A stretch of 64,000 nt of DNA from Flavihumibacter petaseus NBRC 106054 (lineage in GTDB: Bacteria; Bacteroidota; Bacteroidia; Chitinophagales; Chitinophagaceae): positions 1,612,001 through 1,676,000 of the forward strand of contig NZ_BBWV01000001.1 of assembly GCF_000974785.1 (NCBI RefSeq). Direction: 5' to 3'. Within the stretch, counting starts at the first letter, position 1. Every line of letters starts with the position of its first letter. This document shows positions 22,029 through 35,981 of this stretch, piece after piece. Both the position numbers and the translations under genes were made by a program. The notes under the pieces are model-generated. The model did not search any database. It worked only from the letters and a program-made list of their open reading frames with translations, and had not been told where the DNA came from.

Positions 22029-23897
22029 TCATTTCACTATAGCTCTATTTGGAATTAATGCATTTCCGTTTCTAAACTCTTCCACCAAATAAAAATGTTC
22101 AAGCAATGGATCTTGCCAGTATTCTGCGGCTGCATGCTCAAGTAGGATAATCTGAAATCCGTTCTTATATTCCTCCAAGATGTTACTTACAAACGTATTT
22201 AGTAATGCAAAAGCATCCTTCAATGTCTTTCTATCGTCATCCTCCACATCCTCAATATCAGAATTATTCTTGTCAAAATAGGGCTGGCTGGGCTGGTCCA
22301 AAATCAAAAATTGCGGAACATATCTTTCCTCTAACTTTATCAACAATTCATGAATGCCTAAAAACAATGCAAGATGAAGAAACATATAATTTGACTTGCT
22401 ACCGATCAAGGTAGGGAGGGGAGAATCAGGCTTTCTTAGCTTTAGGACCTTTTCTTTAACATCAAAAGTCACTTTGTAACCTTCATAGACTCCCATTGAG
22501 TGGATTAGGCCATAGTACTTTTGCACGGACTCCTCCAACATATCCAACAAATTTTTTCTAATTTCATCTGTGTTCTTCAACTCTTGCTTTAAATGTTCCA
22601 ATTCTTCTTCCAAAAGGTAGATATCAGAAGTAGTTTCATCATCCAGCCATTTACTGCGATAGAAGGCAAGCTGAGCCTTTAACTCCCCAATGAATATGAA
22701 CTTTTGTATCTCACCAATTTGTTCATAAGGATTAACTGAATAGTTCGAAAGCTCAAGATCAACAGTCTCTAGTTGTTTTCGCAAATCACTCAAATGTCCG
22801 GAAATACGCAAGGGTATGTTCTTCCGATCGGCTAACAATTCTTTCACCTTAGTTAACGACTCTTCAAGCGAAAGTAAAAACCTGTTTACTTCTAATGATG
22901 GGATAATCTCGCTATAATTATCTATCAAATAATCAATAGGTAGCAAACTATCTCTACTCTCATTCAAATGATTTCGATACTGAACATACTCCGTTTCGAA
23001 TTTTTCAATTCTGCGAATTTGCCGGACTAGACTTCTCTTTTCCCCCTCAAGCTGTTCCTTCCTTATTATGTTCTGACTTAAATTTGTGGACGTAAATCCG
23101 TTGATTAATGTCTCTAATACAACAACTGCTTCCTCGAACGTATATAGTTTTTGATCAATAAGGTTTAGCGTTTGAGCATAATGTGCCAATTGAATTACTT
23201 CGCGGTTGAAATTTGACTCCTTCTTACTTGCTAGTTCTTTCCTCTTCTCATTTCTTATCAGATCCTTTTCAATTGAATCTATTTTTTCTTTAATTAGAAC
23301 ATTCCCAATATCATCAACGCCAATAACCAGGTAAAATATTCTATCCAATGCCTCTCGATACTTTTCTCGGTCCTTATATAAATCAAAATCAAAATAAATT
23401 TTAGTGTGCGCTATAGTATCTTCTGACAAAGTATTAAATAATAGAAAATACCTGAAGGATACTTTTTGTCCAACTTTTAATTTCTTTCCTCCATAAGGAA
23501 TGACAATATTTTCATTTACGCCAAATTCCGCCTCAAGGATTCCCTTTAGTTTATTGAAATCAATATTCTTTTCTATTGTTTCAGGAACTACTCCATCACT
23601 AGAAAAATAGATGTCCTTTGACCCAGCACCTCCACTACCTTTTCTTCGAATAATCAAAAAATTCTTATCGTTGATTGAAAACCCAAGGCCATACCAAGAA
23701 ACGGACTCATTAATAACTTCTTCGGTTATACTACAGTAGCTTGATAACAAACAATAGTCAATAATTGAAATAATGCTTGATTTCCCTTTGCTTTTCTCCC
23801 CAGTAATGACATTAACCTTGTTGTTTAGGAAATTAATCTCCCTTTTTTCCGCACCATTTTCAAACCAAAGTGTTATTGTTTTTATGTAGAATTTCAT
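22029..23897 (-). CDS. ABC-3C system ATPase, DUF3732 (SMC/RecN-like)
   Basis: 622 residues. Walker A VITGEKSKGKSSII lies near residues 30-43. Long coiled-coil arms follow (residues about 200-470). The distal half carries an ABC signature-like LIGSKSNYMFLHLALFLG and Walker B FLILDQPSQPYF with Asp. This is the DUF3732 ATPase of three-component ABC conflict systems, a stand-alone SMC-like ATPase expected to sense or bind nucleic acid and license an effector. Its start overlaps the stop of the middle component by 4 nt (ATGA), so the genes are coupled. AT-rich composition contrasts with the flanks. Confidence 0.85.
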   Translation of the reverse strand: MKFYIKTITLWFENGAEKREINFLNNKVNVITGEKSKGKSSIISIIDYCLLSSYCSITEEVINESVSWYGLGFSINDKNFLIIRRKGSGGAGSKDIYFSSDGVVPETIEKNIDFNKLKGILEAEFGVNENIVIPYGGKKLKVGQKVSFRYFLLFNTLSEDTIAHTKIYFDFDLYKDREKYREALDRIFYLVIGVDDIGNVLIKEKIDSIEKDLIRNEKRKELASKKESNFNREVIQLAHYAQTLNLIDQKLYTFEEAVVVLETLINGFTSTNLSQNIIRKEQLEGEKRSLVRQIRRIEKFETEYVQYRNHLNESRDSLLPIDYLIDNYSEIIPSLEVNRFLLSLEESLTKVKELLADRKNIPLRISGHLSDLRKQLETVDLELSNYSVNPYEQIGEIQKFIFIGELKAQLAFYRSKWLDDETTSDIYLLEEELEHLKQELKNTDEIRKNLLDMLEESVQKYYGLIHSMGVYEGYKVTFDVKEKVLKLRKPDSPLPTLIGSKSNYMFLHLALFLGIHELLIKLEERYVPQFLILDQPSQPYFDKNNSDIEDVEDDDRKTLKDAFALLNTFVSNILEEYKNGFQIILLEHAAAEYWQDPLLEHFYLVEEFRNGNALIPNRAIVK

Positions 23898-24376
23898 AAT
23901 TGCACCCCCAATTTGTAATAAAGTGATGAGCTAGAATCATCGCCAAACATTCCAATTAATTTGTCGATTGCCGTTAATATTTTTGCATATCTGTCCCCAC
24001 CTTGTTTTGCCGGAATAAAAGCATGCGACTTGTACGCAATTACTCCTCCTTCTAGCTTAACCATGTGCGATTCCATGAGTATACCCATCGCATTCACAGA
24101 CAATGGCAAGAACTCTTTGTATCGCTGATTAAATCCTATTAACAACTCGGGGAAAGATGCGTGAATTTCCTCAACACTTCGCAGAAGTGCTTTTCCCGAC
24201 AGTTTTTTCAATGTTGGATCATGCAGGAGAAAAGGAAGTACCAGCAAGGTATTTCCCAGCTCAATTGTTTCTTTTTTAGAAATATATTCGATCAGAACAA
24301 CTGACGCAAGTGCTTCGTTATTGTAAATAAATTTTCCAGGCATCTTTTTAAGATTTCCAATCATATCGCCAACCAA
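23894..24376 (-). CDS. ABC-3C system middle component
   Basis: 160 residues (MVGDMIGNLKKMPGKFIYNN; MIG at 24364 is another possible start). Mostly alpha, soluble, with the family pattern NEALASVVLIEYISKKE, then LVLPFLLHDPTLKKL. It is the small adaptor protein between effector and ATPase in the three-component ABC conflict systems. It overlaps the effector gene by 29 nt and the ATPase gene by 4 nt, so all three are one operon. Confidence 0.8.
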   Translation of the reverse strand: MVGDMIGNLKKMPGKFIYNNEALASVVLIEYISKKETIELGNTLLVLPFLLHDPTLKKLSGKALLRSVEEIHASFPELLIGFNQRYKEFLPLSVNAMGILMESHMVKLEGGVIAYKSHAFIPAKQGGDRYAKILTAIDKLIGMFGDDSSSSLYYKLGVQL

Positions 24377-25553
24377 TCTGTTCGTTTTCAGACAGCAGAT
24401 AGAATTGACCGTTGCTAAGAGCAGTATCTAACATAGTATCCTCAATTGTTAGTACTTCCCTTCGTATAGTGTCTAAACATTTTAGTGCTCCTTCGATAAT
24501 GTCAGCATCGATTTCTTCAATTTTTCTCCCTCCTTTGACTAGCTTTTCCACTGCCCTTGTTGATTCCTTAAAAATGTTTCTCCACTTTAGAATTGATTCA
24601 TTGTCAAATACTTGTCTAACGGCTGGTCCTATGTAGCCACTTTTCTCCCACTCTTCAAGGTGATTCAGAAGAAGAAGCATGTTGGTGGTATGCTCAATGA
24701 TTTCATCCTCTTTGCTGTCATCTAGGTCGTTGATATCTATTAACATTTTTATGAATCTCAGTTTGGTGGGTTCGCTTGGAATAGCTACGGCGACTCGCCT
24801 AATGGGAAGTTTTCCATTAGCTCCGGTAAAATAGCAAGAGCCAAAAAGGCGTTTATATTCATCAAAAGTGATTTGTATTTTTTTCCCGGCTTTTATTGTT
24901 TTGTAGAAATACGTGCGAATATTGCTGTGGAGTGAGTGATAGACATCATCGTGATTATTTCGAACGACAATTGATGATTTAATTTTTTCTTTTATTTTCC
25001 TTATTAAATCATCTTGGTCGAGAGTAAATCGAAGGGACGACAAAAGCACATCTCGCTCTTTCATCTTCAATTTCAATACATTTTCCATCCATTTTTTAAC
25101 TTCCGAATCCTTAGTCCCATTTGAAAGAGCGCTTATGTATTCCTTCATTTTTTTTGATGAAATACTTTTCTGCTGAAACTTTGATATTTCTTGCAGAAGC
25201 GGGTTCTTCCTGTTTGCTTTGTTACTTACAAGTTGAAACTGGTATCGGCTACGATCACTTTCTGGGATATTTTTAATAACATCTGCCCAATTAGAAAGCG
25301 ACTACCACAGGTCATGATCTCTTTCAGTTAAATTAATAGGATCGCTTTGATAATTTGTTTGCAGGGTATGCTTAGTTTGAATTAGGACAATGTTTCCATT
25401 ATTCAATTCAATCGCAATGTCATCTTTGTCTTCAAAAGTTATTGTTTGATCAGATTCTATTCCCAACATCAAAAGAAAACAGTAATAAAACTGATAGTCA
25501 AATCCGATTGCTGTTTCTGCCGCAGAAGTTTTATTTAAATAGCTGGATGTCAT
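24348..25553 (-). pseudogene. ABC-3C effector/CTD protein interrupted by in-frame TAG
   Basis: The N-terminal part (25553 to 25305, 83 residues) begins MTSSYLNKTSAAETAIGFDY and contains GFDYQFYYCFLLMLG ... FEDKDDIAIEL and VLIQTKHT, the D/E...QxKH pattern of a restriction-type (Cap4-like) nuclease domain. It then meets TAG at 25302-25304 in the context LW-stop-SLSNWADVI. The same frame continues without other stops for 317 residues to 24348, giving the C-terminal ABC-3C domain. Relatives carry LWKTLSNW here, so AAG to TAG is the simplest reading. The full product would be 401 residues. Either the system is disabled, the base is an error, or readthrough occurs. A downstream restart at ATG 25148 would yield only the C-terminal domain. 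Confidence 0.8.
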
Positions 25554-25681: not shown

Positions 25682-25996
25682 CTACGGCCTCCCCGTTGAT
25701 ACATTTTGGGCCTGATTGCGGTTATAAAGCTTGCCGCTCTTCGTCGGTTTTAAATGCGCTAGTAGGAAATGCAGCAGGATCAACAGCCGGTTCGCCAACC
25801 AGCGGCCGCCATCCAGCAGGGAGCTGGGATGTTGCAGGATATCTTCCTGGGCAAGATGAATTGCTGGAGTCATATGTTAGATCCCTTCCGGGATCCTTCC
25901 CAGTCCTGCTTTTCCACCAATGGCTCAACGGAAAAAACAAAATGTCGCACGCCGCAATTTCCGATGCGTTAGGAGTTCCAGCACGTGAAATGACGC
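25682..25996 (-). pseudogene. Truncated, frameshifted copy of the AraC regulator at 27829-28746
   Basis: One frame reads CGVRHFVFSVEPLVEKQDWE, then breaks. The next frame reads DLTPAIHLAQEDILQHPSSL, LDGGRWLANRLLILLHFLLA, HLKPTKSGKLYNRNQAQNV to a stop at 25682. The intact gene has CGVRYFVCPVEVLVENLDWE and DLTPAMHLALDEILQPPSPL in the same order. The HTH half is absent. It is a dead partial paralogue abutting the DUF4143 shard. Confidence 0.8.
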
Positions 25997-27043: not shown

Positions 27044-27832
27044 TTAATGTAATACAGTTTTGATTTCATAGCCAACAGGTCCCCAATTGGCCTCTTCCCC
27101 ATTTTTCACCAGTCCCAATGTCTTTCTACCCTCCAGTATTTCGACATTACCACCGTGAGACTTTACCATTGGGTGAAGACTATCTGATGAAACGGGAATA
27201 ACTTCAAAGGCACCTGAATATACCCGGAAGGCATAATCCCCATAATAGGTAAAGATGCCAAAGCTGTCCGTTTTTTTGACACTAATTCGAGCGGCACCGT
27301 TCAGGTAGATGCGCCTGACACCGCCATACCAGCCATGGCTGTAGGTAAGGCTCGCACCGGGGTGCAATACCACGTGGGAACTATCGGGGAGCCATAGGGT
27401 TACTGGCACATTATTAGCACGGGTCGTGGAATCACCAAAGTTTTCAGCTTTCACGGGGTGACCTTTTACCAGCCGGGTCAGCGGATGGGAAGGCATTATA
27501 TGATCAAGCCAGAGGATAAAAATTATCAGCGCCAGCCCACCCAGGAAGATCCGCCAGAACCATTTCCAGAAGGGGCTTCTTTTGCGCGGCGATTTTTTGG
27601 TATTCCGGATCAGGGCGCTGATGGCCGCGCCGCCGGTACCCTCGCAGGTAAAGTCCACCATGAGGTCGAAAAATTCGAAATTGCCCTCCTGCTCGTGCAG
27701 CCACCGGTCCAGCCGGTTGCGCTCGGCCCGGGTGGAAGTTTCCAGGAAAAACCGCTGCATGATGCCAGAGATCTCAGGGGTCAGGTCGATCCGCGCCGCC
27801 GCTTCTTTGATCAGTTGCTTTCTCGTTTTCAT
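27044..27832 (-). CDS. FecR-like membrane protein
   Basis: 262 residues from ATG 27832, whose ATGA overlaps the AraC stop. Residues 1-70 are a cytosolic helical domain. A membrane helix follows (WRIFLGGLALIIFILWLDHI, about 91-110). A periplasmic beta-domain has the FecR pattern VPVTLWLPDSSHVVLHPGAS, LTYSHGWYGGVRRIYLNGAA, with a FRVYSGAFEVIPVSS end. FecR proteins are anti-sigma factors or sensors acting with an ECF sigma factor and a TonB receptor. Here neither is adjacent, and the partner is an AraC regulator, an uncommon arrangement. Function is inferred from family. Confidence 0.7.
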   Translation of the reverse strand: MKTRKQLIKEAAARIDLTPEISGIMQRFFLETSTRAERNRLDRWLHEQEGNFEFFDLMVDFTCEGTGGAAISALIRNTKKSPRKRSPFWKWFWRIFLGGLALIIFILWLDHIMPSHPLTRLVKGHPVKAENFGDSTTRANNVPVTLWLPDSSHVVLHPGASLTYSHGWYGGVRRIYLNGAARISVKKTDSFGIFTYYGDYAFRVYSGAFEVIPVSSDSLHPMVKSHGGNVEILEGRKTLGLVKNGEEANWGPVGYEIKTVLH

Positions 27833-28746
27833 GACACATTGTTTTTGCGCCACTCACTCGGCGTGATCTTATGAATAGATTCAAAACTGACCCGGAACGC
27901 ATCCGGTGATTCAAAACCACAGGCCGCCGCTATCGAATTGATCGTACGGCTCATGTCCCGCAACAGCTTCAGGGAAAGTTCATTCCGGTGATGCTTCAGC
28001 CGTTGCATAACGGTCATGCCGAAGTGCTTCCGGAACGCACAAACCAACGTGCTTTCGTTCATGCCGATCGCCTTCGCAATCTCTTCATAGTAAACGGTGC
28101 GGTGCAGGTTATTCCGGATATAGGTATCCGCGGCATTCAGCTGCGCTTCCCGGTTATACAACTTGCCGCTCTTCGGCGTTTTCAGGTGCTCCTGCAGCGA
28201 TTGGAGCAGCATCAGCAGCCGAGTGGTCAGCCAACCGCCACCATCCCGAAGGGGACTGGGCGGTTGCAGGATCTCGTCCAGTGCAAGGTGCATCGCCGGC
28301 GTCAGGTCATAGATCCCTTCCGGGAATCCTTCCCAGTCCAGGTTCTCTACCAATACCTCAACTGGACAAACAAAATACCGCACCCCACAATTTTCCGCTA
28401 CGGTAATCAGCTGATCCAGGTTCTGGAAGAAACAGATCTTTCCCCTGTTCACGTCCCAACTGATGGCCGACGGTATGTCCAGGTGAAGATTGCCATCCAG
28501 CAGGAGCATCATTTTCATGCCCTCCGTTGGCAGCTTTTGTCGCAGCGTTACCGGTGGCTTCCAATCATAGCGCACCTGGTAGAGAGGACAACGCATCACC
28601 TGGTGTTCCAGCACATACAGTTTGCCATGCCAGGCATCTTCGTGATACGCCGCTTTCACCGGGAAGGCCGACCTGGGATATTCCCATTGTTGCATGGGCT
28701 TCAGGTAGAACTTAAGATCGCGCGCTATATAGAATTCTAACTCCAA
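27829..28746 (-). CDS. AraC-family transcription regulator
   Basis: 305 residues. The C-terminal region (about 205-300) has two HTH units: YYEEIAKAIGMNESTLVCAF and INSIAAACGFESPDAFRVSF, then the KITPSEWRKNN end. The N-terminal half has no cupin motif recognised. It should bind paired direct repeats. Two 10-bp half-sites with 20-bp period lie about 77-106 nt upstream of its start (28823-28852), suggesting autoregulation. The FecR-like gene overlaps its stop. A decayed partial copy lies at 25682-25996. Confidence 0.85.
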   Translation of the reverse strand: MELEFYIARDLKFYLKPMQQWEYPRSAFPVKAAYHEDAWHGKLYVLEHQVMRCPLYQVRYDWKPPVTLRQKLPTEGMKMMLLLDGNLHLDIPSAISWDVNRGKICFFQNLDQLITVAENCGVRYFVCPVEVLVENLDWEGFPEGIYDLTPAMHLALDEILQPPSPLRDGGGWLTTRLLMLLQSLQEHLKTPKSGKLYNREAQLNAADTYIRNNLHRTVYYEEIAKAIGMNESTLVCAFRKHFGMTVMQRLKHHRNELSLKLLRDMSRTINSIAAACGFESPDAFRVSFESIHKITPSEWRKNNVS

Positions 28747-28822
28747 TGACGTTCATTTTGCCCTGTAAGACTATAAAAACGTTTGGAATTTTTACAAGGA
28801 ACTTCGTGTTTGAAATAAATAC

Positions 28823-28852
28823 GGCGTGAATGGAAAAATACCGGCGCGAATG
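28823..28852 (-). promoter_or_regulatory. Tandem half-sites upstream of araC-like gene (site A)
   Basis: GGCGTGAATG (28823-28832) and GGCGCGAATG (28843-28852) repeat with 20-bp period. Read toward the AraC gene they are CATTCRCGCC boxes, 77-106 nt upstream of its start. The same boxes in the same orientation to their downstream gene occur at 30270-30297. Confidence 0.55.
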
Positions 28853-28862
28853 ACCGTCAGCG

Positions 28863-29183
28863 TCAGCTCAAAATGTTCAGTTTGGTCACCAGGTTGTCGA
28901 AATAAGGCTTGGTGACTGGTATGACCATCGACCCAATCACTGCCTTGTCTTTGCTGATCTCTTCCAGGTAATAAACCGACACGGCCCAGCCGCGATGCGT
29001 GCGCACGAAGATATCCCCGGACACCTGCTTGAGGAGCGTAGTCAACGGAAGCCTTGCAATCAAATGACGGTCTTGTGTGAGGTGAATTTTGGTGTAAACA
29101 CGTTCCGCGCTGAGCGCTACTACATCCAATGGGTTCACGCCTTTCAGGGTACGGCCCTGCCAGATATAAAACGGTGGAAGCAT
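28863..29183 (-). CDS. Stand-alone LytTR DNA-binding protein 1
   Basis: 106 residues with no receiver domain. The LytTR pattern is clear: LKGVNPLDVVALSAERVYTK, then RLPLTTLLKQVSGDIFVRTH, RGWAVSVYYLEEI, and the basic-hydrophobic end VIPVTKPYFDNL. LytTR domains bind direct repeats about 22 bp apart. A 22-bp tandem repeat lies at 29312-29355, upstream of this gene. Lack of a sensor partner suggests autoregulation or a small-molecule or protein input not visible here. Confidence 0.8.
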   Translation of the reverse strand: MLPPFYIWQGRTLKGVNPLDVVALSAERVYTKIHLTQDRHLIARLPLTTLLKQVSGDIFVRTHRGWAVSVYYLEEISKDKAVIGSMVIPVTKPYFDNLVTKLNILS

Positions 29184-29311
29184 GTGTGTGGGATTTAGGT
29201 TTGTTCTACCAAACTAGAAAAAAAATTCAATATCCAGCCGCGAACAGGTCCTGTGAACGATGTGTGGTTCAATTCCGAATCAATTCCGAATGAATCGAGG
29301 TAAACGGGTGT

Positions 29312-29355
29312 TTCGGAACATATTTCACCATACTTCGGAACATATTTCATCATAC
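29312..29355. repeat. 22-bp tandem direct repeat (possible LytTR site)
   Basis: Two adjacent 22-mers starting TTCGGAACATATTTCA at 29312 and 29334 differ at one base (C/T at the 17th position). The 22-bp period fits two helical turns, as in LytTR direct-repeat operators. The site lies in the 334-nt intergenic region between LytTR 1 and the protein gene at 29518. Two short ATTCCGAAT copies precede it (29272-29290). Confidence 0.55.
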
Positions 29356-29493
29356 CCGGGAACAAATTCCGGAAAATGGCAAAATCTCGCATTGCATTTG
29401 TAGTAATGGGCATCGGCTGTGCAGGCGTTGCACAGGACAGTGGGTGTGCAACCTCACTGCCTGCCTGCGTGGCCACTGAGTAAACAATATTTT

Positions 29494-29509
29494 TTAACCA
29501 TTAAAAATT
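29494..29509 (+). promoter_or_regulatory. Conserved 16-bp leader element, copy 1
   Basis: TTAACCATTAAAAATT occurs 8 nt before the start of the gene at 29518. An identical 16-mer lies 6 nt before the related gene at 30793. It probably contains the ribosome-binding or leader sequence shared by the family. Confidence 0.55.
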
Positions 29510-29517
29510 CGTATTCT

Positions 29518-30078
29518 ATGGCAAACGCTAAAAGCCTTATTGCCGGTCACCTGAACGGCATGTTAGGAAAAGAGATCGTGTTCCGCAACTGGGAAGATAA
29601 AACCATTGTGGCCAAAGCGCCGGGTGAACGTACTACCCCGCCGACCGCACCACAAGTGAAGGTCCAGCGGAACTTCACCCAGGGTAGCCAGTACGCCAAG
29701 TCGATCCTTTTGGATCCTGACCTGGTAGCGGGTTACAAAAGGGCACTCCGGCCAAGGCAGAATGTCTATAGCCGTGCGCTGCAGGATTTTGTCACGCCTC
29801 CCGAAGTAACGGACATCACCATCCGTAACTATACCGGGCAGGTTGGCGACATCATCGAAGTGCGCGCAGTGGATGACTACCTTGTCACCAAAGTGTATGT
29901 AGAGATCCGTGCAGCCAATGGCGACCTGCTGGAAGGTGGTGTTGCAGTATTGCAGCCCAAGGGCAATGTATGGAACTATGCCGCTACTGTGCAGAACCCC
30001 GCCCTCGCAGGCACCAGGGTGATCGCCTTTGCGAACGACTTTCCGGGAAATGAAGCATCCCTCGAAGTGCTGTTATAA
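29518..30078 (+). CDS. Conserved Bacteroidota protein of unknown function, module protein A
   Basis: 186 residues from ATG 29518. It is N-terminally basic (ANAKSLIAGHLNGMLGKEIV), and the middle carries GSQYAKSILLDPDLVAGYKR. The C-terminal half is a beta-sandwich-like domain (VTDITIRNYTGQVGDIIEVR, VTKVYVEIRAANGDLLEGG, TRVIAFANDFPGNEASLEVL). It lacks a signal peptide. It is paralogous to the interrupted gene at 30793-31353: both have the G.L.G..GK or G..G..GD N-terminus, the DP.L or NPAL.A.Y helix, and the C-terminal DFPGN/DLPGN end. Its function is unknown. It lies between LytTR genes and is followed by a terminator. Confidence 0.7.
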   Translation: MANAKSLIAGHLNGMLGKEIVFRNWEDKTIVAKAPGERTTPPTAPQVKVQRNFTQGSQYAKSILLDPDLVAGYKRALRPRQNVYSRALQDFVTPPEVTDITIRNYTGQVGDIIEVRAVDDYLVTKVYVEIRAANGDLLEGGVAVLQPKGNVWNYAATVQNPALAGTRVIAFANDFPGNEASLEVLL

Positions 30079-30115
30079 GATAAAGGTTTCCGACGACCTT
30101 TGATCACGAAGGATG

Positions 30116-30149
30116 GAGCTGTATCCGAAAGGATGCAGCTCTTTTTTTT
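30116..30149 (+). terminator. Intrinsic terminator of module protein A gene
   Basis: GAGCTGTATCC (30116-30126), GAAA loop, GGATGCAGCTC (30131-30141), then eight T. The stem has one mismatch in the middle and the loop is a GNRA tetraloop. It sits 38 nt after the stop at 30078. This is a strong, textbook terminator. Confidence 0.9.
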
Positions 30150-30269
30150 GTGCCTGCCATCTGATAACCGAAAAAATCAACAAAGCCGGCCGAAGAAACC
30201 GATAAGAAAAAAGCGCAGTTTTCGATGCGCCAAAAAAATCCGCAGTTTTTAGCATGCTTCAAAACGGTT

Positions 30270-30297
30270 ATTCACGCCGGGAAACTGCCATTCGCGC
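30270..30297 (+). promoter_or_regulatory. Tandem half-sites upstream of LytTR 2 (site B)
   Basis: ATTCACGCC (30270-30278) and ATTCGCGC (30290-30297) repeat with 20-bp period, 98-125 nt before the LytTR gene at 30395. Bases and orientation relative to the gene match site A upstream of the AraC gene, so the AraC protein is the likely binder. Confidence 0.5.
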
Positions 30298-30394
30298 AGC
30301 TTTTTGGTCAAACACGAAATTCATTTGGAAACGTGTAATACGGAAGTTATAATGACCGTGTTAAAATCATTATTCACTTTTTAAAAAAACAGTT

Positions 30395-30718
30395 ATGAAA
30401 AAACCTGTCTTTCGCTCAGCAGATGACCAGGTGATGAGGGGGGTAAATGCAAAGCAGATCCTGTTCATCATCGGCAGGGGAAATTGGTGCGAAGTGTACA
30501 CCAGCGGGCATGTGTTCCGGGTGGACAAGCCGCTTCCTTATGTGATGCGTTGCCTGCCCCAGTTATGCCTGGAGAAGCTGGATCGCAGCACCGCTGTGAA
30601 CCTGTTCAAATTTGGCGGGCTTGAAGGCAACAAGATCTGGCTCGGGCCCTATGCGCTAACCATGGGACCAGCATTTGCCCGGTGGATGAAAAGTCTCTTC
30701 CGGAATGATTCAAGTTAG
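30395..30718 (+). CDS. Stand-alone LytTR-like protein 2
   Basis: 107 residues. Pattern ILFIIGRGNWCEVYTSGHVF, RVDKPLPYVMRCLP, then LDRSTAVNLFKFGGLEGNKI and WLGPYALTMGP follows LytTR order (beta-strand, helix, conserved R/NL turn, final strand), though more divergent than LytTR 1 and 3. It lacks a receiver. Site B lies upstream. It precedes the interrupted module gene by 75 nt and probably is co-transcribed with it. Confidence 0.65.
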   Translation: MKKPVFRSADDQVMRGVNAKQILFIIGRGNWCEVYTSGHVFRVDKPLPYVMRCLPQLCLEKLDRSTAVNLFKFGGLEGNKIWLGPYALTMGPAFARWMKSLFRNDSS

Positions 30719-30770
30719 CAGTAAACAGGTGGTGCCGGCCGGCAAGACTACCGCAAGGAAACAACATTTA

Positions 30771-30786
30771 TTAACCATTAAAAATT
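30771..30786 (+). promoter_or_regulatory. Conserved 16-bp leader element, copy 2
   Basis: TTAACCATTAAAAATT, identical to 29494-29509, ends 6 nt before the start codon of the module gene at 30793. Confidence 0.55.
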
Positions 30787-30792
30787 AAAACA

Positions 30793-31353
30793 ATGGCAGT
30801 AGTAAAACCCGGCTCTATCCTGCATGGATTCAGGGGAAGAGTCGGAGATTATGTTCTCCGTAGGATCGGTAACAAGACCATCGTGTCTGCGGCACCGAAA
30901 GCCCGGAAGGGAAAGCCTACAGCAGGGCAACTCGCTTACCAGGAGAGATTCCGCCTCGCGAACATTTATGCCGCTTAGCTGAAAACCAATCCTGCGCTGA
31001 AAGCTCAATACGAGGCAGCGCGGAAGGGGAATCAGTCTGCGTACAATGTGGCAGTGATGGATTATCTCAAAGGACCAGAGATCGCTGATCCGGTAACCAG
31101 CCACTACAAAGGGAAGAAAAAGCAACCGATTACGGTGACGGTGGTGGATAACTTCCGGGTGGTAAGGGTAACATTTTTCCTCTATGCTGCGGACCGTACT
31201 TTACTGGAACAGGGACCCGCAAAAAAGGAAATATTGGGGAATGACTGGACCTATTGGACCAAAGTAGCCAATCTTAAGTTGAGAGGAACCATGCTTCGCA
31301 TTGAAGCGGAGGATCTCCCTGGCAATAGGACTGTGTTGCAGACGAAGCTGTAG
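30793..31353 (+). pseudogene. Module protein B, interrupted by in-frame TAG
   Basis: MAVVKPGSILHGFRGRVGDY opens the gene. Codon 62 (30976-30978) is TAG in the context NIYAA-stop-LKTNPALKAQYEAARKG. The frame then stays open to 31353, giving a 186-residue product with one nonsense codon. Relatives of this family carry Gln or similar there (CAG to TAG is one step). The C-terminal half (VTVVDNFRVVRVTFFLYAAD ... AEDLPGNRTVLQTKL) matches module protein A. It may be a recent pseudogene, a sequencing error, or a readthrough-dependent gene. Translation from ATG 31048 could give a truncated C-terminal part. Confidence 0.75.
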
Positions 31354-31409
31354 CCCGTTTTTGAATCCACTTTATGAAAACCAATTTTTTAATCTAAAAC
31401 CCAATGTTT

Positions 31410-31637
31410 ATGAAACAGCAGGAAATCGACAAGCTGTCGCTTGCGGAAAGGGCGCTCTCGGAGACGCCGACTTTCTTTGTTAAGCTGCGCAATATCGGGA
31501 TGGCGCTTGCCGCCATCAGTGCAGCGCTCCTGGCGAGCCCGGTGGCCCTCCCGGCCATCATCACGACCATCGCGAGTTATCTCGGTGTGGCTGCTACGGT
31601 AGCCAGTGCCGTGAGCCAGGTGGCAGTGAAGGGCTAA
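31410..31637 (+). CDS. Small hydrophobic protein (75 aa)
   Basis: MKQQEIDKLSLAERALSETP head is amphipathic and charged. A long Ala-rich hydrophobic tail follows (LRNIGMALAAISAALLASPV, ALPAIITTIASYLGVAATVA), consistent with one or two membrane helices. No known family. It lies 3 nt before the DUF5675 gene, so it is translationally linked. Its size and form recall holins, although that link is inference. Confidence 0.65.
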   Translation: MKQQEIDKLSLAERALSETPTFFVKLRNIGMALAAISAALLASPVALPAIITTIASYLGVAATVASAVSQVAVKG

Positions 31638-31640
31638 GCC

Positions 31641-32063
31641 GTGGAATTGTTACTTGAGCGGACCTATCATCCGACCGGTACGGATGGGATCCTCAGCATT
31701 GCCGAAAGGTTTTGTTGCTATACGATCGAGCTCCCCTGGCGGGATAACCGCAGAAGGATCTCCTGCATTCCGGAAGGCAGGTATCCGATAGCGTTGCGCT
31801 TCAGCAAAAGGCACCAGTACCATCTTCTCGTGCAGACGGTACCCGGCCGCAGCCTGATCCTCATTCACAAGGCAACCAATGCCTTAAAGGAGCTGAAAGG
31901 CTGCATCGCCCCGGTGCAGGAATCGCTGAAGCCGGGAATCGGCCGGCACAGCGCCCATGCCTTCAAGGCGCTGATGCTGGCGGTCCAGGAGGCAATGGAC
32001 CAGGGAGAGCCCGTCACCCTGACGATCACGCGGCTAGCCAACCGCTATCTCGCTCAGCCGTAA
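31641..32063 (+). CDS. DUF5675 family protein
   Basis: 140 residues starting at GTG 31641 (VELLLERTYHPTGTDGILSI). The conserved blocks ELPWRDNRRRISCIPEGRYP and LILIHKATNALKELKGCIAP, then FKALMLAVQE, match DUF5675, which is found with phage and Bacteroidota surface or secretion-type gene clusters. The biochemical role is unknown. It starts 3 nt after the hydrophobic protein and is followed by a strong terminator, closing this unit. Confidence 0.8.
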   Translation: MELLLERTYHPTGTDGILSIAERFCCYTIELPWRDNRRRISCIPEGRYPIALRFSKRHQYHLLVQTVPGRSLILIHKATNALKELKGCIAPVQESLKPGIGRHSAHAFKALMLAVQEAMDQGEPVTLTITRLANRYLAQP

Positions 32064-32077
32064 GGTTGATCTATGGC

Positions 32078-32107
32078 GCCCCCGCCAATCCTGGCGGGGG
32101 CATTTTT
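32078..32107 (+). terminator. Intrinsic terminator after DUF5675 gene
   Basis: GCCCCCGCCA (32078-32087), ATCC loop, TGGCGGGGGC (32092-32101), then ATTTTT. Ten-bp perfect GC-rich stem, 15 nt after the stop codon. Confidence 0.93.
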
Positions 32108-32129
32108 AAACCATAATTTTTAATCGACA

Positions 32130-32147
32130 TACCGTGTTTTCACGGTA
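32130..32147. promoter_or_regulatory. 7-bp-arm inverted repeat upstream of LytTR 3
   Basis: TACCGTG and CACGGTA pair perfectly around TTTT. It lies 75-92 nt before LytTR 3. It could be an operator or small leader hairpin. Confidence 0.35.
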
Positions 32148-32221
32148 CCGGAATTTGTAACAAATGCCTAATTATACGTTTCGAACGACTTAACCCAATT
32201 AACCTTTATTCTTATCCCGTT

Positions 32222-32545
32222 ATGAGTCAGCAACCACCAGTTATTCAACTCCCCTACGGCGACGGACATCACATTGTACCGTTTGCAGCAATTATTTACA
32301 TTCAAGTGAATAATAAGCTTTCCCGGGTAGTTACTGAACAACGTGAATACCCGATAACTCGCAGTTTAGCATCCTGGCTTTCTGACCTACCTGAGGATCT
32401 ATTCCTCAAAGTGCACCGATCGCGAATCATTGGCTTATCCCATATCCAAGTTATCAAAACAAATAAGGTTATCGTTTCCGGCAAGGAAGTACCCTTGAGC
32501 CGCACCGGCCGGCAGGCGTTACAAGAGAAATATCCTAAGATGTAG
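32222..32545 (+). CDS. Stand-alone LytTR DNA-binding protein 3
   Basis: 107 residues. It reads HHIVPFAAIIYIQVNNKLSR, VVTEQREYPITRSLASWLSD, LPEDLFLKVHRSRIIGLSHI, QVIKTNKVIVSGKEVPLSRT and ends in GRQALQEKYPKM, the canonical LytTR order. There is no receiver domain. It is the third such protein in 3.7 kb. About 330 nt of AT-rich, apparently empty DNA separates it from the next gene. Confidence 0.85.
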   Translation: MSQQPPVIQLPYGDGHHIVPFAAIIYIQVNNKLSRVVTEQREYPITRSLASWLSDLPEDLFLKVHRSRIIGLSHIQVIKTNKVIVSGKEVPLSRTGRQALQEKYPKM

Positions 32546-32879
32546 AGCAGTCATAACAAGAACTATGCATGCTTAATTTACCAAATAATACAATTTAGAA
32601 GATTCTTGTAATTCAATATGTTGTTAATATAGATAATACTAATGCGAGCGCATTCTGTACTATCTCAAAAATTTGTATTTTGATGTATCAGTTGAAAATA
32701 AGTGACACAAGATAGCTCACCGCTTAAATAGGAATTTGCAAGATTTGGCTTTCTAAAAGGTATAGCAGCTGAAGAGGGAAAAGGGAATGCTATATTGTGT
32801 TTGGCTCGAATTTTCATAGTAATAGAGATTAGGCCTTCGAGGTGTGTATGAAAATCCAAGAATTTACGAAAGTAAAATA
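32546..32879. other. AT-rich intergenic stretch with no recognised gene
   Basis: 334 nt, strongly AT-rich, between LytTR 3 and the large beta-propeller gene. I see no open frame with coding texture, no hairpin and no clear promoter box. Confidence 0.6.
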
Positions 32880-35800
32880 ATGGGCATGAAGATACCTTTT
32901 GCAATTTTTCCCCGCATTGCTTATAGAAACAGCCAGTTTCAGATTGTCTCGCATTTCGACAATCTTAAAATAGAAATTTATAAAAATGACAAACTGATTA
33001 AAACAGTTGAGGCCGATTCAGCCCACCCAACAATAATTACACAACTAAAGGAAATTGGAAAGATTACAGCGAAATGCAGTATAAACAATAAAACATTCGA
33101 ACAGGAATTTGAAATTAAAGATGCTTATAGATTAGGATCAAGCGAATTCAAGCGGGCTTTCCTATTTGATGAGTCACCATACTGTTTCTTCTTAATGAAA
33201 GACCGACTTCTTCTTTACAATTGCGAAAAAAAGATATTAATAACTGAAAATCACTATAGTCCAACCGAAATACAAAATATAGACAATAGAAATTTTTTAT
33301 TTGTGACTAGAATAGGAGATTCAAGTTCTAGAGGTATTGTAAATCTTGGAATCTACAACACCGACTCTCTCAATGTTGTAGGACAATTACTTAACAGTTT
33401 TAGAGTATTAAAGATAGTTGCGAGTGAAAATATGGCTTGGGTCCACAACATTTTCACTAATACAATTAGCTGTTACAAATTAGTTCAATCACCTAATACC
33501 TTTTTCGTAGAAATAGAAAAGTTCGATAAGTTTAATTCTTTTATTGTTGAAGATAGATCACATAGTATTATTATAGACTATCCAGATAAGATTGTAATTT
33601 CTAGTATCTACAGAAATCGGCCAGCAAGTATAATTTATAAGGCTGTAAATAATGCAGTTGACAGATTGGGGAATGTTGTGTCTTTGGTTGACGACGATAC
33701 AGTTTCGATAGTCAGTATCCTAGGACATAAAGTGCAAACTCCCGCCCCAGTTGAATTTAAGCTATCTAGTGACAATCAAATTTATGTCGGAAAATTGCTT
33801 GAGCAGAAGCTGTTTTTTTCAAATTTCAATTTGCCCCATGATGTTAGTGGCCGAATAATAGGTGAAATTCCAGAAGGACTTACAAATTATAGGTGTACCC
33901 TTAAAGGCACAGATGTTTTGTCTGAATCGATAATAACACATAGATTTTTTCAAACAACTGACGGCTCATTTGTAATACGAAAATGCCGCTTTAGGGAAGT
34001 TCGTAGTTGGACGTTTAAAAAGTTAGGCGACAACTGGAATGCAAGTCCAGACGTAACTGAAGGAACAGAATATGCTTTAATGCATTTATCTAAGGTAGGA
34101 GTTATGAATTTGATTGAAAAGTCAGAATTCATTTCAATCCTAGATTATAATTATCCTACCTTATTAGTCGCATCCGACGGAAGGCAACACATATTTCGCG
34201 GCAGTGAAAGGGAAGTTTTTGACAAAACTACAGAGATAGCATTGTTAGCTGTTGGGGGACACCAATATCTATTGAAAACGATTGAGGATAACTGTTCAGT
34301 TTATGGTTTAGCTAGTCTTAGTGAACCAATTTTGGAGAATGTCAAGCTCTTAAATCGACCAGAAGTGGAAGAACACAAGATAATTTGGTATTCTGAGGTT
34401 TTGTCAGGGGAAACCCAACTAAAAGCTTTTGATTTAAACTCTTCCACCAAACTTGATGTTACGGAAATTAGTCACGAATGGTTTAGATCGATCAATGATG
34501 TGAAGTTTTATAAATATTATGCTCTCTTTCCAAATCAAATTGTCTTCAACCCAAAGAACCTACAGATTAAGGATGCATTTGTGGGAAATCTAATTAGTCA
34601 TTCATCAAATCTAAATAAACTAGTTTCTCACAGAGCGAATTCATTTTACTTGTTTACTTATGACCTCTCTTCTGGAAAATATTTGACCGAGCAGGTTGAC
34701 CTTTCCAATGATAAGTATATAGAATCCTATCTTTCACCTAACGGTCGGTATTTGGTATTGAAGATGAATGATAGATATGAGTTCTACGACATTGAAAAGA
34801 ATGAAATAACTAATTTTATTTCAGGAATATTTTTGGGGTTTAGAAACGATGGGAGCTTAATTGTTGAGCAGAACAGTACTAGGAAAGTAAAGATAATTGA
34901 TCCAGTTACATTTAGCGATATTACTCCACCAAACTACCACCACTACCGTTTTTTGAGTCCAGATGGAAAGTTATACGCTCAAATTTCTAGTAGCTTCAGA
35001 TATTATAATAGGATAACCAATGCCCAGATTTCTGTAGAGGAGGTTACTAAATATCGTAGAGACCTGGATGATCCTATTTTTATCGCTCAAGGAGATGAAT
35101 TGATAAGAGCTAAGCAATTAGTTAATGCAAATAGACGTGAATTATTTACGTCCTTTGAACAGGAGTTTATAAAACATGGCTTGTCAGATTTCACGGACAT
35201 TAATTCATCCAGTATCGTTAAGAACGAAAAATATACAGAAATTGGAATTGTTGGGACGGAGGTTAAAGTGGAAATTAAGTTTCCCGAAGATTTGTCATAT
35301 TACAATTATGCAGCTTTTAGCTATGACAATAGGCACTTTGGTTATGTAGGCAAACCAGTTCAAAGAGGCTTAATTCATTTATTTAGGATCGATTTTGATG
35401 AATCTAATTTGACTCTAAAAATTGTTGATAGTTACCTAAGCAGATATCCTAGCCGTGCCTCTTGGGTCTGTGGTTTTTCTAAGACCGGATATTTTGCTAC
35501 ATACGACAGTATACCTAATACGTTTATTATATTTTTGGATAGTGTTCTTTTTGAGAAAAAACCTTCGGAAGTGGAACTTGGTCGCTCTGTTTCAAAATCT
35601 CAAAATAATATTTATTACTCATTCGAAAATTGGAATGAGATAAAGGGGAAAAATTTTTTATGTTTTAGTCCAACAGGCAACTTTGTCGCCTTATCTGAAC
35701 AGGGTTATGAGCCACTTACTTTGGGTGGATATGGGCATCAAGAATCAAATGTTGTGCACATTGCTGCAACCGAATCAGGTAAAATAATTGATTCTTTTAC

Positions 35801-35981
35801 GGGACATGGTGGATCAATAATGGAAAGTATGTCAAAAAAGGTAACATTCGTTGCGTTTTCTGAAGATGAAAAGAAATTGATGACACTCAGTTCAGACGGG
35901 GTAGTCTATATTAGGTCCATTAATCTTACAGTACCTTTTGAAGAACATCAAACCCCCGAGGTACTAACTTACAAAGGTTAA
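32880..35981 (+). CDS. Very large beta-propeller-like protein of unknown function
   Basis: About 1033 residues from ATG 32880 (ATG 32886, MKIPFAIFPRIAYRNSQFQI, is also plausible). It has no signal peptide. The whole chain is a succession of 40-50-residue beta-strand blocks: repeated [FY]LF or LLYNC, LIVEQN, YLSPNGRYLVLKM, FLSPDGKLYAQIS, FAAFSYDNRHFGYVG, FSPTGNFVALSEQG. The last block is WD40-like: VTFVAFSEDEKKLMTLSSDG. This suggests one or two propellers with a C-terminal WD-type repeat. Propellers are usually binding platforms. No enzymatic motif and no partner gene is visible. Codon use is much more AT-rich than in either flank. Confidence 0.7.
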   Translation: MGMKIPFAIFPRIAYRNSQFQIVSHFDNLKIEIYKNDKLIKTVEADSAHPTIITQLKEIGKITAKCSINNKTFEQEFEIKDAYRLGSSEFKRAFLFDESPYCFFLMKDRLLLYNCEKKILITENHYSPTEIQNIDNRNFLFVTRIGDSSSRGIVNLGIYNTDSLNVVGQLLNSFRVLKIVASENMAWVHNIFTNTISCYKLVQSPNTFFVEIEKFDKFNSFIVEDRSHSIIIDYPDKIVISSIYRNRPASIIYKAVNNAVDRLGNVVSLVDDDTVSIVSILGHKVQTPAPVEFKLSSDNQIYVGKLLEQKLFFSNFNLPHDVSGRIIGEIPEGLTNYRCTLKGTDVLSESIITHRFFQTTDGSFVIRKCRFREVRSWTFKKLGDNWNASPDVTEGTEYALMHLSKVGVMNLIEKSEFISILDYNYPTLLVASDGRQHIFRGSEREVFDKTTEIALLAVGGHQYLLKTIEDNCSVYGLASLSEPILENVKLLNRPEVEEHKIIWYSEVLSGETQLKAFDLNSSTKLDVTEISHEWFRSINDVKFYKYYALFPNQIVFNPKNLQIKDAFVGNLISHSSNLNKLVSHRANSFYLFTYDLSSGKYLTEQVDLSNDKYIESYLSPNGRYLVLKMNDRYEFYDIEKNEITNFISGIFLGFRNDGSLIVEQNSTRKVKIIDPVTFSDITPPNYHHYRFLSPDGKLYAQISSSFRYYNRITNAQISVEEVTKYRRDLDDPIFIAQGDELIRAKQLVNANRRELFTSFEQEFIKHGLSDFTDINSSSIVKNEKYTEIGIVGTEVKVEIKFPEDLSYYNYAAFSYDNRHFGYVGKPVQRGLIHLFRIDFDESNLTLKIVDSYLSRYPSRASWVCGFSKTGYFATYDSIPNTFIIFLDSVLFEKKPSEVELGRSVSKSQNNIYYSFENWNEIKGKNFLCFSPTGNFVALSEQGYEPLTLGGYGHQESNVVHIAATESGKIIDSFTGHGGSIMESMSKKVTFVAFSEDEKKLMTLSSDGVVYIRSINLTVPFEEHQTPEVLTYKG

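What the first reader, a model, noticed from the sequence alone, without database searches (positions are those of the whole stretch)
28863..32545. Repeated LytTR module with unknown paralogues, hydrophobic peptide and DUF5675
Three stand-alone LytTR proteins of 106-107 residues alternate with two related 186-residue proteins that share a 16-bp leader (TTAACCATTAAAAATT), followed by a small hydrophobic protein and DUF5675. Each unit ends in a strong terminator. The arrangement looks like an expandable cassette under local control and matches no system I know.
Basis: inference. Interest (0 to 1): 0.7.

Follow-up and report, generated by a model that had tools for sequence, protein, structure and literature searches.

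The report
LytTR-controlled phage-lysis-like gene module
A recurring bacterial gene set pairs a duplicated protein of unknown job with two phage-type genes that probably open the cell envelope, beside its own regulators, and it may be an undescribed way for Bacteroidota to release proteins.

Summary
The finding is real, but its borders and parts list need correcting. Of the two "186-residue paralogues" one is intact (F186a) and one is broken by an in-frame TAG (F186b). Two, not all, of the units end in a strong terminator. The own genome has 21 F186 matches, and 10 of its 12 stand-alone LytTR genes lie beside one. In 296 sampled Bacteroidota genomes the hydrophobic peptide ("hyd") has an F-type gene upstream in 26 of 28 cases, 22 with DUF5675 as well. 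In Flavihumibacter and here the set also has AraC, a FecR-like membrane protein and LytTR; the window carries these at 27044-29183. F186's N-terminal half belongs to the DUF6266 superfamily. Many members have direct repeats of 11 or 22 bp upstream: 37 of 68 against 13 of 549 control upstreams; the 11 controls traced all belong to the same superfamily or region. hyd relatives sit in phage lysis regions. DUF5675 is phage-borne, with an invariant His/Cys pair and a weak match to L,D-transpeptidase folds. Best reading: a locally regulated, phage-derived release or lysis module with F186 as cargo or partner. The module is shown; its function is inferred (0.42).

The parts
27044..27853 (-). FecR-like membrane protein (269 aa from GTG; 262 aa from ATG at 27832, which overlaps the AraC stop by 4 bp)
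   Evidence: 7 of 9 aligned relatives match Pfam FecR at E up to 0.1, best 3.9e-8; the window copy itself is not among them. One hydrophobic segment near residues 88-115. Overlap. Conserved beside the module.
27829..28746 (-). AraC-type regulator, 305 aa
   Evidence: Pfam HTH_18 3.5e-18; conserved trio partner
28863..29183 (-). Stand-alone LytTR A, 106 aa, divergent from F186a
   Evidence: Pfam LytTR 35.9 bits
29269..29294 (.). 11-bp-period direct repeat between LytTR A and F186a
   Evidence: score 14 at lag 11; only equals the best of 40 shuffles
29312..29367 (.). 22-bp-period direct repeats, proposed LytTR operator
   Evidence: score 25 at lag 22; best of 40 dinucleotide shuffles 14; family D3
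29479..29509 (+). Leader repeat copy 1 (holds TTAACCATTAAAAATT)
29518..30078 (+). F186a: DUF6266-like N-terminal domain plus Ig-like C-terminal domain, 186 aa
   Evidence: 21 matches in own genome; AlphaFold2 pLDDT 88.3; DUF6266 link
30115..30142 (+). Terminator-like hairpin after F186a
30395..30718 (+). Diverged LytTR B, 107 aa, first gene of the second unit
   Evidence: Pfam LytTR 15.3 bits, below cut-off
30756..30786 (+). Leader repeat copy 2
30793..31353 (+). F186b, interrupted by an in-frame TAG (30976-30978)
31404..31637 (+). hyd: 77-aa hydrophobic peptide, relative of a protein of phage lysis regions
31641..32063 (+). DUF5675, 140 aa, likely L,D-transpeptidase-like enzyme
   Evidence: Pfam 2.5e-28; H76, G87 and C88 invariant in 18 of 18; weak fold match
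32078..32101 (+). Terminator-like hairpin after DUF5675
32222..32545 (+). Stand-alone LytTR C, 107 aa
   Evidence: Pfam LytTR 63.1 bits

Best explanation
This is a chromosomal module made of a DUF6266-superfamily gene (F186 here, a 250-aa counterpart elsewhere), a phage-type cell-wall enzyme (DUF5675) and a phage-type hydrophobic peptide (hyd). In Flavihumibacter and in this genome it stands beside AraC, a FecR-like membrane protein and LytTR. SHOWN: the conserved gene set and order, the expansion of F186 together with LytTR, and the helically spaced upstream repeats. INFERRED: the FecR-like protein reports an envelope signal; LytTR and AraC then turn on the F186 promoter and the LytTR B-F186b-hyd-DUF5675 unit; hyd opens the inner membrane and DUF5675 loosens peptidoglycan, so that cytoplasmic F186 is released from some cells, in the manner of a Type 10 secretion or lysis cassette. 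Stand-alone F186 copies would be extra cargo variants of the same regulon. In the window copy F186b is interrupted, so this copy may be partly out of use; the C18 copy has open hyd, DUF5675 and FecR-like frames but an F186 gene without the first 25 or so residues.
For: Gene set: 26 of 28 hyd genes have an F gene upstream on the same strand within 1.5 kb, 22 also DUF5675 (on). Tight packing: DUF5675 starts 6-7 nt after the last sense codon of F186 in L124, L125, L128, L129. 13 of 29 hyd loci of the genome scan have an F186 piece, 19 have DUF5675. Trio AraC-FecR-LytTR beside the module at 9 distinct loci, AraC and FecR-like overlapping by 4 bp in the window, L121, L122 and L123. LytTR: 10 of 12 stand-alone genes lie within 1 kb of an F186 match; F186 and divergent LytTR sequences vary together (9 pairs r 0.74, 0 of 5000 permutations; r 0.78, p 0.0012 without the twin). 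Repeats: 37 of 68 F upstreams score 14 or more at 11/22/33 bp against 13 of 549 controls; the 22-bp period fits LytTR operators (9-bp repeats separated by 11-13 bp, PMC6193735, passages). Phage lysis: 53 viral loci encode a hyd relative; in L149 the gene before it is a PHROG holin (1.8e-12), in L163 a peptidase M15 follows 1.2 kb downstream. DUF5675: 121 phage records; in one microvirus it is the only hypothetical protein of six genes; Tlde1a fold at probability 0.75-0.80.
Against: No holin family matches hyd itself and DUF5675 was not tested biochemically. Foldseek for DUF5675 is weak (no E at or below 0.001). hyd and DUF5675 were not seen together in the viral contigs read (0 of 53 hyd loci; 0 of 80 DUF5675 loci). 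No spanin was identified, and none was sought. 29 of 53 F250 genes have neither hyd nor DUF5675 within 1.5 kb, and most F186 copies here are alone, so F must also act without the pair. Within the own genome alone the LytTR/F186 co-variation is not significant (5 pairs, r 0.64, p 0.13). Repeats also precede DUF6266 and some F250 genes: no LytTR was scored in the held stretches of the 7 F250 loci of alignment A8, and the 3-kb loci were not scanned for LytTR; so LytTR may not read all the arrays. F186b here is interrupted.
Confidence: 0.42

Rival explanations
1. Programmed-lysis or immunity module: the hyd/DUF5675 pair is a self-lysis effector (anti-phage or toxin-antitoxin-like), and F186/DUF6266 proteins are its sensors or restrainers, which is why extra F copies are kept without the pair.
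For: Phage-type lysis parts beside dedicated regulators; many orphan F genes (29 of 53 F250; most of 21 F186 matches); a Lamassu-like cluster lies 1.5 kb beyond the regulator genes.
Against: No PADLOC model matches any of 8 module or relative proteins. F precedes hyd in 26 of 28 cases. Family scans of the module proteins gave no nuclease or nucleotide-signal domain (one weak PHROG 'endonuclease' hit of LytTR C at E 0.16 apart).
Confidence: 0.2
2. Non-lytic envelope remodelling: DUF5675 edits peptidoglycan and hyd is a small membrane adaptor; F186 is a structural or scaffold protein made under envelope stress that the FecR-like protein senses.
For: L,D-transpeptidase-like His/Cys pattern, FecR-like protein beside the module, Ig-like C-terminal domain.
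Against: F186a has no hydrophobic segment that could be a signal or anchor; hyd and DUF5675 relatives are abundant in phages.
Confidence: 0.18
3. Domesticated or decaying phage debris plus a dispersing selfish gene: F186 spreads as LytTR+F186 or F186-only units, and the lysis pair is a passenger without present function.
For: Patchy presence (15 of 147 family genomes) with high copy number in few (21 and 19); dispersed copies 85-94% identical in DNA with about 290 bp of upstream DNA; F186b interrupted in the window, F186 shortened at its start at C18.
Against: Gene order is kept across families of the phylum; hyd is 62-68% identical to that of another genus (G015); the C18 DUF5675 and FecR-like frames are open; no transposase was noticed beside the copies by eye.
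Confidence: 0.12

Closest known systems
Type 10 secretion systems / chromosomal phage lysis cassettes (Serratia ChiWXYZ recalled; Yersinia entomophaga, PMC10847048 abstract and Main section)
   Same: Phage-type membrane peptide and cell-wall enzyme beside candidate cargo and dedicated regulators; an L,D-transpeptidase takes part in one T10SS (PMC12729407, passages)
   Different: hyd is no recognised holin, the enzyme is DUF5675, no spanin identified (none sought), cargo role of F186 not shown, phylum Bacteroidota
LytTR Regulatory Systems (LRS; PMC6193735, passages)
   Same: Stand-alone LytTR with a membrane protein in one gene set, and direct repeats of about two helical turns upstream
   Different: Membrane partner is FecR-like and an AraC regulator is added; many arrays have an 11-bp period and more than two copies; inhibition and autoregulation untested
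Pfam DUF6266 (PF19781)
   Same: N-terminal about 100 residues of F186 are homologous (first-round hits of a three-protein profile to 5.9e-9; hhalign 2.7e-26 after iteration, which by then includes F186 members); upstream 10-11-bp repeats shared
   Different: C-terminal half is an Ig-like domain in F186; F186 members get no DUF6266 hit (0 of 18)
Pfam DUF5675 / PHROG 1501
   Same: Window gene is a plain member
   Different: Here it is chromosomal, joined to hyd and F186

Membership tests
Type 10 secretion system | Holin | tested here: inconclusive
   hyd matches no holin family, but in L149 the phage relative lies next to a PHROG holin
Type 10 secretion system | Peptidoglycan hydrolase or editing enzyme | tested here: inconclusive
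   DUF5675: invariant H76/C88 (18 of 18); weak Tlde1a/LDT fold match
Type 10 secretion system | Spanin | not tested
   No specific spanin search was made
Type 10 secretion system | Located outside a prophage | tested here: inconclusive
   Neighbours listed are not obviously phage genes by eye; no systematic prophage call
Type 10 secretion system | Secretes a cargo | not testable with these tools
   needs an experiment
LytTR Regulatory System | Stand-alone LytTR regulator | tested here: met
LytTR Regulatory System | Adjacent transmembrane protein in the operon | tested here: met
   FecR-like protein with one hydrophobic segment in the same gene row; co-transcription not measured
LytTR Regulatory System | Two 9-bp direct repeats separated by 11-13 bp upstream of the promoter | tested here: inconclusive
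   22-bp period in the window and 21-22 bp in 5 of 9 divergent pairs against 6 of 59 others (score 13 or more); many others have an 11-bp period; no promoter mapped
LytTR Regulatory System | Membrane protein inhibits the regulator; positive autoregulation | not testable with these tools
   needs an experiment
DUF6266 | Match to the Pfam model | tested here: not met
   0 of 18 F186 members hit DUF6266; only the N-terminal half is homologous
L,D-transpeptidase (YkuD) | YkuD fold with catalytic Cys/His | tested here: inconclusive
   no Pfam YkuD hit
Known anti-phage defence systems (PADLOC) | Match to a PADLOC model | tested here: not met
   0 of 8 proteins at E up to 0.1

The most novel reading that the evidence does not exclude
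A Bacteroidota-wide release system not yet named: proteins of the DUF6266 superfamily, with a common N-terminal domain and exchangeable C-terminal domains, are cargo of a two-gene phage-derived lysis pair (DUF5675 L,D-transpeptidase-like enzyme + hyd), controlled by an AraC-FecR-LytTR sensor set or other regulators that read arrays of copy-specific direct repeats spaced one or two helical turns, so that each copy has a private operator.
Probability: 0.27. Interest if true: 0.85.

Novelty: new variant of a known kind. Interest (0 to 1): 0.6.

Why it matters
DUF6266 and DUF5675 are families of unknown function: in the searched library DUF6266 occurs in no paper and DUF5675 in two (listing only). 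Here they are tied to one gene set, to a phage-type membrane peptide and to a sensory cassette, which gives direct tests of function. The 11/22-bp repeat arrays upstream of a protein superfamily are a clean, unexplained regulatory signature: 37 of 68 upstreams against 13 of 549 controls, of which the 11 traced all belong to the same superfamily or region.

Tried and rejected
Prophage origin of F186/F250: no relatives in IMG/VR with the patterns used, so not adopted, although those patterns were narrow. The first hyd scan of IMG/VR, with the window protein alone, found nothing; the alignment found 53. F250 as a distal tail protein: 1 of 7 members, E 4e-4; not followed. F186 and F250 as proven homologues: hhalign weak (prob 0.5 and 15, E 0.12 and 0.0018); kept only as positional counterparts. 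Weak Pfam hits of F186 members (Ketoacyl-synt_C in 3 of 18, best 0.0018) were taken as chance. The 16-bp leader as a general signature: only two copies. F186 fold: the PDB matches are to the Ig-like half or spread over long poor alignments, none with E at or below 0.001; sequence search of the PDB gave only E 0.21 and 0.27, for DUF5675 only 0.4 and worse. A TAG-recoding reading of the stop in F186b was not pursued. Small membrane ORFs near phage DUF5675 (26 of 80) had no control and are not used. One search read the wrong strand for minus-strand loci and was replaced; one search paired L043 with the wrong LytTR, and the pairing was redone. F250 upstreams: 5 of 29 have lag 11 with score 14 or more, so most lack arrays.
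Full report
WHAT IS IN THE WINDOW. The genome (G000, 5.69 Mb, 22 contigs; window = C22:1612001-1676000) is unnamed but close to Flavihumibacter: 10 of the 11 best hyd loci of the genome scan are Flavihumibacter. Left to right: FecR-like (27044-27853, -), AraC (27829-28746, -), LytTR A (28863-29183, -), a divergent promoter region with two repeat arrays, F186a (29518-30078, +), terminator-like hairpin, then LytTR B - F186b (broken by TAG) - hyd - DUF5675 (30395-32063, +), a second hairpin, and LytTR C (32222-32545, +). hyd and DUF5675 are 3 bp apart; the FecR-like ATG overlaps the AraC stop by 4 bp. The leader repeat is 31 nt at 90% and its 16-mer core is unique to these two places in the genome.

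EXPANSION IN THE GENOME. F186a has 21 matches at E up to 0.01, full-length or N-terminal half only, at scattered places. Of 34 LytTR matches over the cut-off, 12 are in frames of 160 aa or less; 10 of these 12 lie within 1 kb of an F186 match (places compared). The other two form a pair at C20:24660-25422 that carries a relic of an F186/LytTR intergenic region (79 bp at 96% to another relic, L057). hyd and DUF5675 occur at only two places, here and at C18. At C18 the hyd, DUF5675 and FecR-like frames are open (the stops are the gene ends), while its F186 lacks the first 25 or so residues (162 aa). Four F186 copies (L046-L049), 85-94% identical in DNA, share about 290 bp upstream; in the L047/L048 pair the similarity runs on into LytTR (1284 bp). 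L046 and L049 therefore carry the repeats without an adjacent LytTR hit.

OTHER GENOMES. In 147 genomes of the family 15 have F186, one other with 19 copies. A scan of the species-genome collection with hyd gave 29 loci; 19 have DUF5675 and 13 an adjoining F186 piece (L120-L125, L127-L132, L135), 10 of these 13 with a stand-alone LytTR in the stretch. In seven other loci (L133, L136, L137, L138, L142, L145, L147) the place of F186 is taken by a 250-aa protein starting MARQKG or alike (F250; no Pfam match in the three scanned; alignment A8). Part of the listing was cut, so the other loci were not read gene by gene. In 296 genomes of the phylum, hyd gives 28 matches in 19 genomes; 26 of 28 have F250 or F186 upstream on the same strand within 1.5 kb, 22 also DUF5675; 22 of 34 DUF5675 and 24 of 53 F250 matches belong to such sets. 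DUF6266 genes start up to 2.7 kb upstream of F250 in 8 cases (37 DUF6266 and 53 F250 matches compared).

THE REGULATORY TRIO. AraC, FecR-like and LytTR genes adjoin the module in the window, at C18, and in L120-L124, L127 and L128 (9 distinct loci; L107 appears to be the same contig as L122, by length and coordinates); L125 and L129 have AraC without FecR. In L121, L122 and L123 the FecR-like ATG overlaps the AraC stop (ATGA) and LytTR starts about 20 bp after FecR-like. Seven of nine FecR-like proteins match Pfam FecR (best 3.9e-8). In the own genome the better hits of the window protein are the two modules (C18 also has a fragment); three weak hits are the FecR part of longer frames.

THE REPEAT ARRAYS. 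Upstream of F genes there are tandem direct repeats whose sequence differs from copy to copy but whose period is 11 or 22 bp. With a match/mismatch run score over lags 8-45 in 300 bp, 40 of 68 F upstreams score 14 or more, 28 of them at lag 11 and 8 at lag 22; at lags 11/22/33, 37 of 68 reach 14 against 13 of 549 other genes in the same loci. The 68 include two DUF6266 genes (L135, L146). At lags 11/22 the controls are 11; six share the intergenic region with an F gene, three are F250 genes (L137, L142, L145), one is a DUF6266-type gene (L144), one is the LytTR-pair neighbour in L061, in the relic region. The two further controls (lag 33) were not traced. After clustering similar upstreams, 20 of 46 F clusters against 10 of 454 control clusters remain. 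DUF6266 genes of other genomes: 12 of 28 readable upstreams have lag 10-11 with score 14 or more (no control set of its own); F250: 5 of 29. The window's own arrays: 29312-29367 (22 bp; score 25, best of 40 shuffles 14) and 29269-29294 (11 bp; score 14, only equal to the shuffle best). Lags of 21-22 are commoner beside a divergent LytTR (5 of 9) than elsewhere (6 of 59; Fisher p 0.004). LytTR regulators of LRS bind 9-bp direct repeats separated mostly by 12, sometimes 11 or 13 bp (PMC6193735, passages); AgrA binds two direct repeats upstream of its promoters (PMC4227749, passages). So LytTR is the likely reader of the 22-bp arrays. Who reads the 11-bp arrays at genes without a nearby LytTR is open. 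F186 and divergent LytTR sequences vary together over 9 pairs (r 0.74, 0 of 5000 permutations; without the twin r 0.78, p 0.0012), but not significantly in the own genome alone (5 pairs, p 0.13); common descent of the host genomes is not removed by this test.

PROTEINS. F186: AlphaFold2 (15-row alignment, pLDDT 88.3, pTM 0.70) gives a beta-hairpin, three helices and a seven-stranded Ig-like domain; no PDB match has E at or below 0.001. A profile of three proteins of DUF6266 type (L135 by Pfam; L141 and L146 found through the F186 profile) finds 12 F186 proteins in the first round, best 5.9e-9. Some family members carry other C-terminal parts (L058, L116). DUF5675: pLDDT 88.0, pTM 0.84; invariant H76, G87, C88 (18 of 18); Foldseek ranks 2 and 4 are Tlde1a (probability 0.80 and 0.75), B. 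subtilis L,D-transpeptidase at 0.15; no match has E at or below 0.001, and rank 1 is RNase E at probability 0.18. It is found in 121 phage records, among them microviruses of about 5 kb, and in 185 viral-contig stretches (80 loci kept). hyd: 77 aa, hydrophobic from about residue 30 on, 84-92% identical within the genus and 62-68% in another genus; 53 viral loci; in L149 the preceding gene is a PHROG holin (1.8e-12), in L163 a peptidase M15 gene follows 1.2 kb downstream. F186a has no hydrophobic segment.

HOW IT MOST LIKELY WORKS. The parts suggest a Type-10-like release or lysis module: membrane peptide and wall enzyme of phage type, an F-type protein made with them, and a sensor set beside them. 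Steps shown: gene set, order, expansion, arrays, sequence families. Steps inferred: LytTR binding, sensing by the FecR-like protein, membrane opening by hyd, wall editing by DUF5675, release of F186. The main rivals are programmed lysis with F as restrainer, non-lytic envelope remodelling, and phage debris; none is excluded.

LITERATURE. DUF6266: 0 papers. DUF5675: 2 papers, seen in the listing only. Flavihumibacter with LytTR: 0. LytTR with Bacteroidetes and direct repeats: 2 papers, listing only; further LytTR listings. T10SS: listing, PMC10847048 abstract and Main section, PMC12729407 passages. LytTR binding: PMC6193735 and PMC4227749 passages. Serratia ChiWXYZ gene names are recalled.

Noticed in passing
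window 22029-25553 (-): Lamassu-like cluster: LmuB (3e-84), LmuC (1.9e-5) and LmuA in two separate pieces (83 aa and 266 aa), so LmuA looks interrupted.
   Followed up: partly
window 25685-25876 (-): 64-codon fragment related to the module's AraC gene (2.5e-10): a possible remnant of another copy of the regulatory set.
   Followed up: no
L131:1333-7109 and L132:1247-5563: Cas9-like proteins (RuvC-type start, recognised by eye), in L131 followed by genes that look like cas1 and cas2, a few kb from F186-hyd.
   Followed up: no
L134:510-1139, L147:10508-10783, L148:10288-10761: Small proteins with repeated SKLTKADAG-type motifs directly after hyd; no Pfam match for the two scanned, L134 and L148.
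   Followed up: no
L058:3687-4256 (-), L116:4282-4857: DUF6266-like N-terminal domain joined to a different C-terminal part that looks like a winged helix by eye; the same N-terminal domain also stands alone (L055, L059, L060).
   Followed up: partly
L043:4606-11321 (C18 of own genome): Second copy of the whole module with four LytTR genes, a fragment of the FecR-like gene and an F186 gene that lacks its first 25 or so residues.
   Followed up: yes
L051:3939-4505 and L052:4120-4689 upstreams: F186 copies without clear direct-repeat arrays (best scores 10 and 14 at lags 22 and 53); their upstreams show inverted-repeat-like AT-rich motifs instead, seen by eye.
   Followed up: no
window 32844-35981 (+): Large 1045-aa protein after LytTR C; no PADLOC hit; not examined further.
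   Followed up: no
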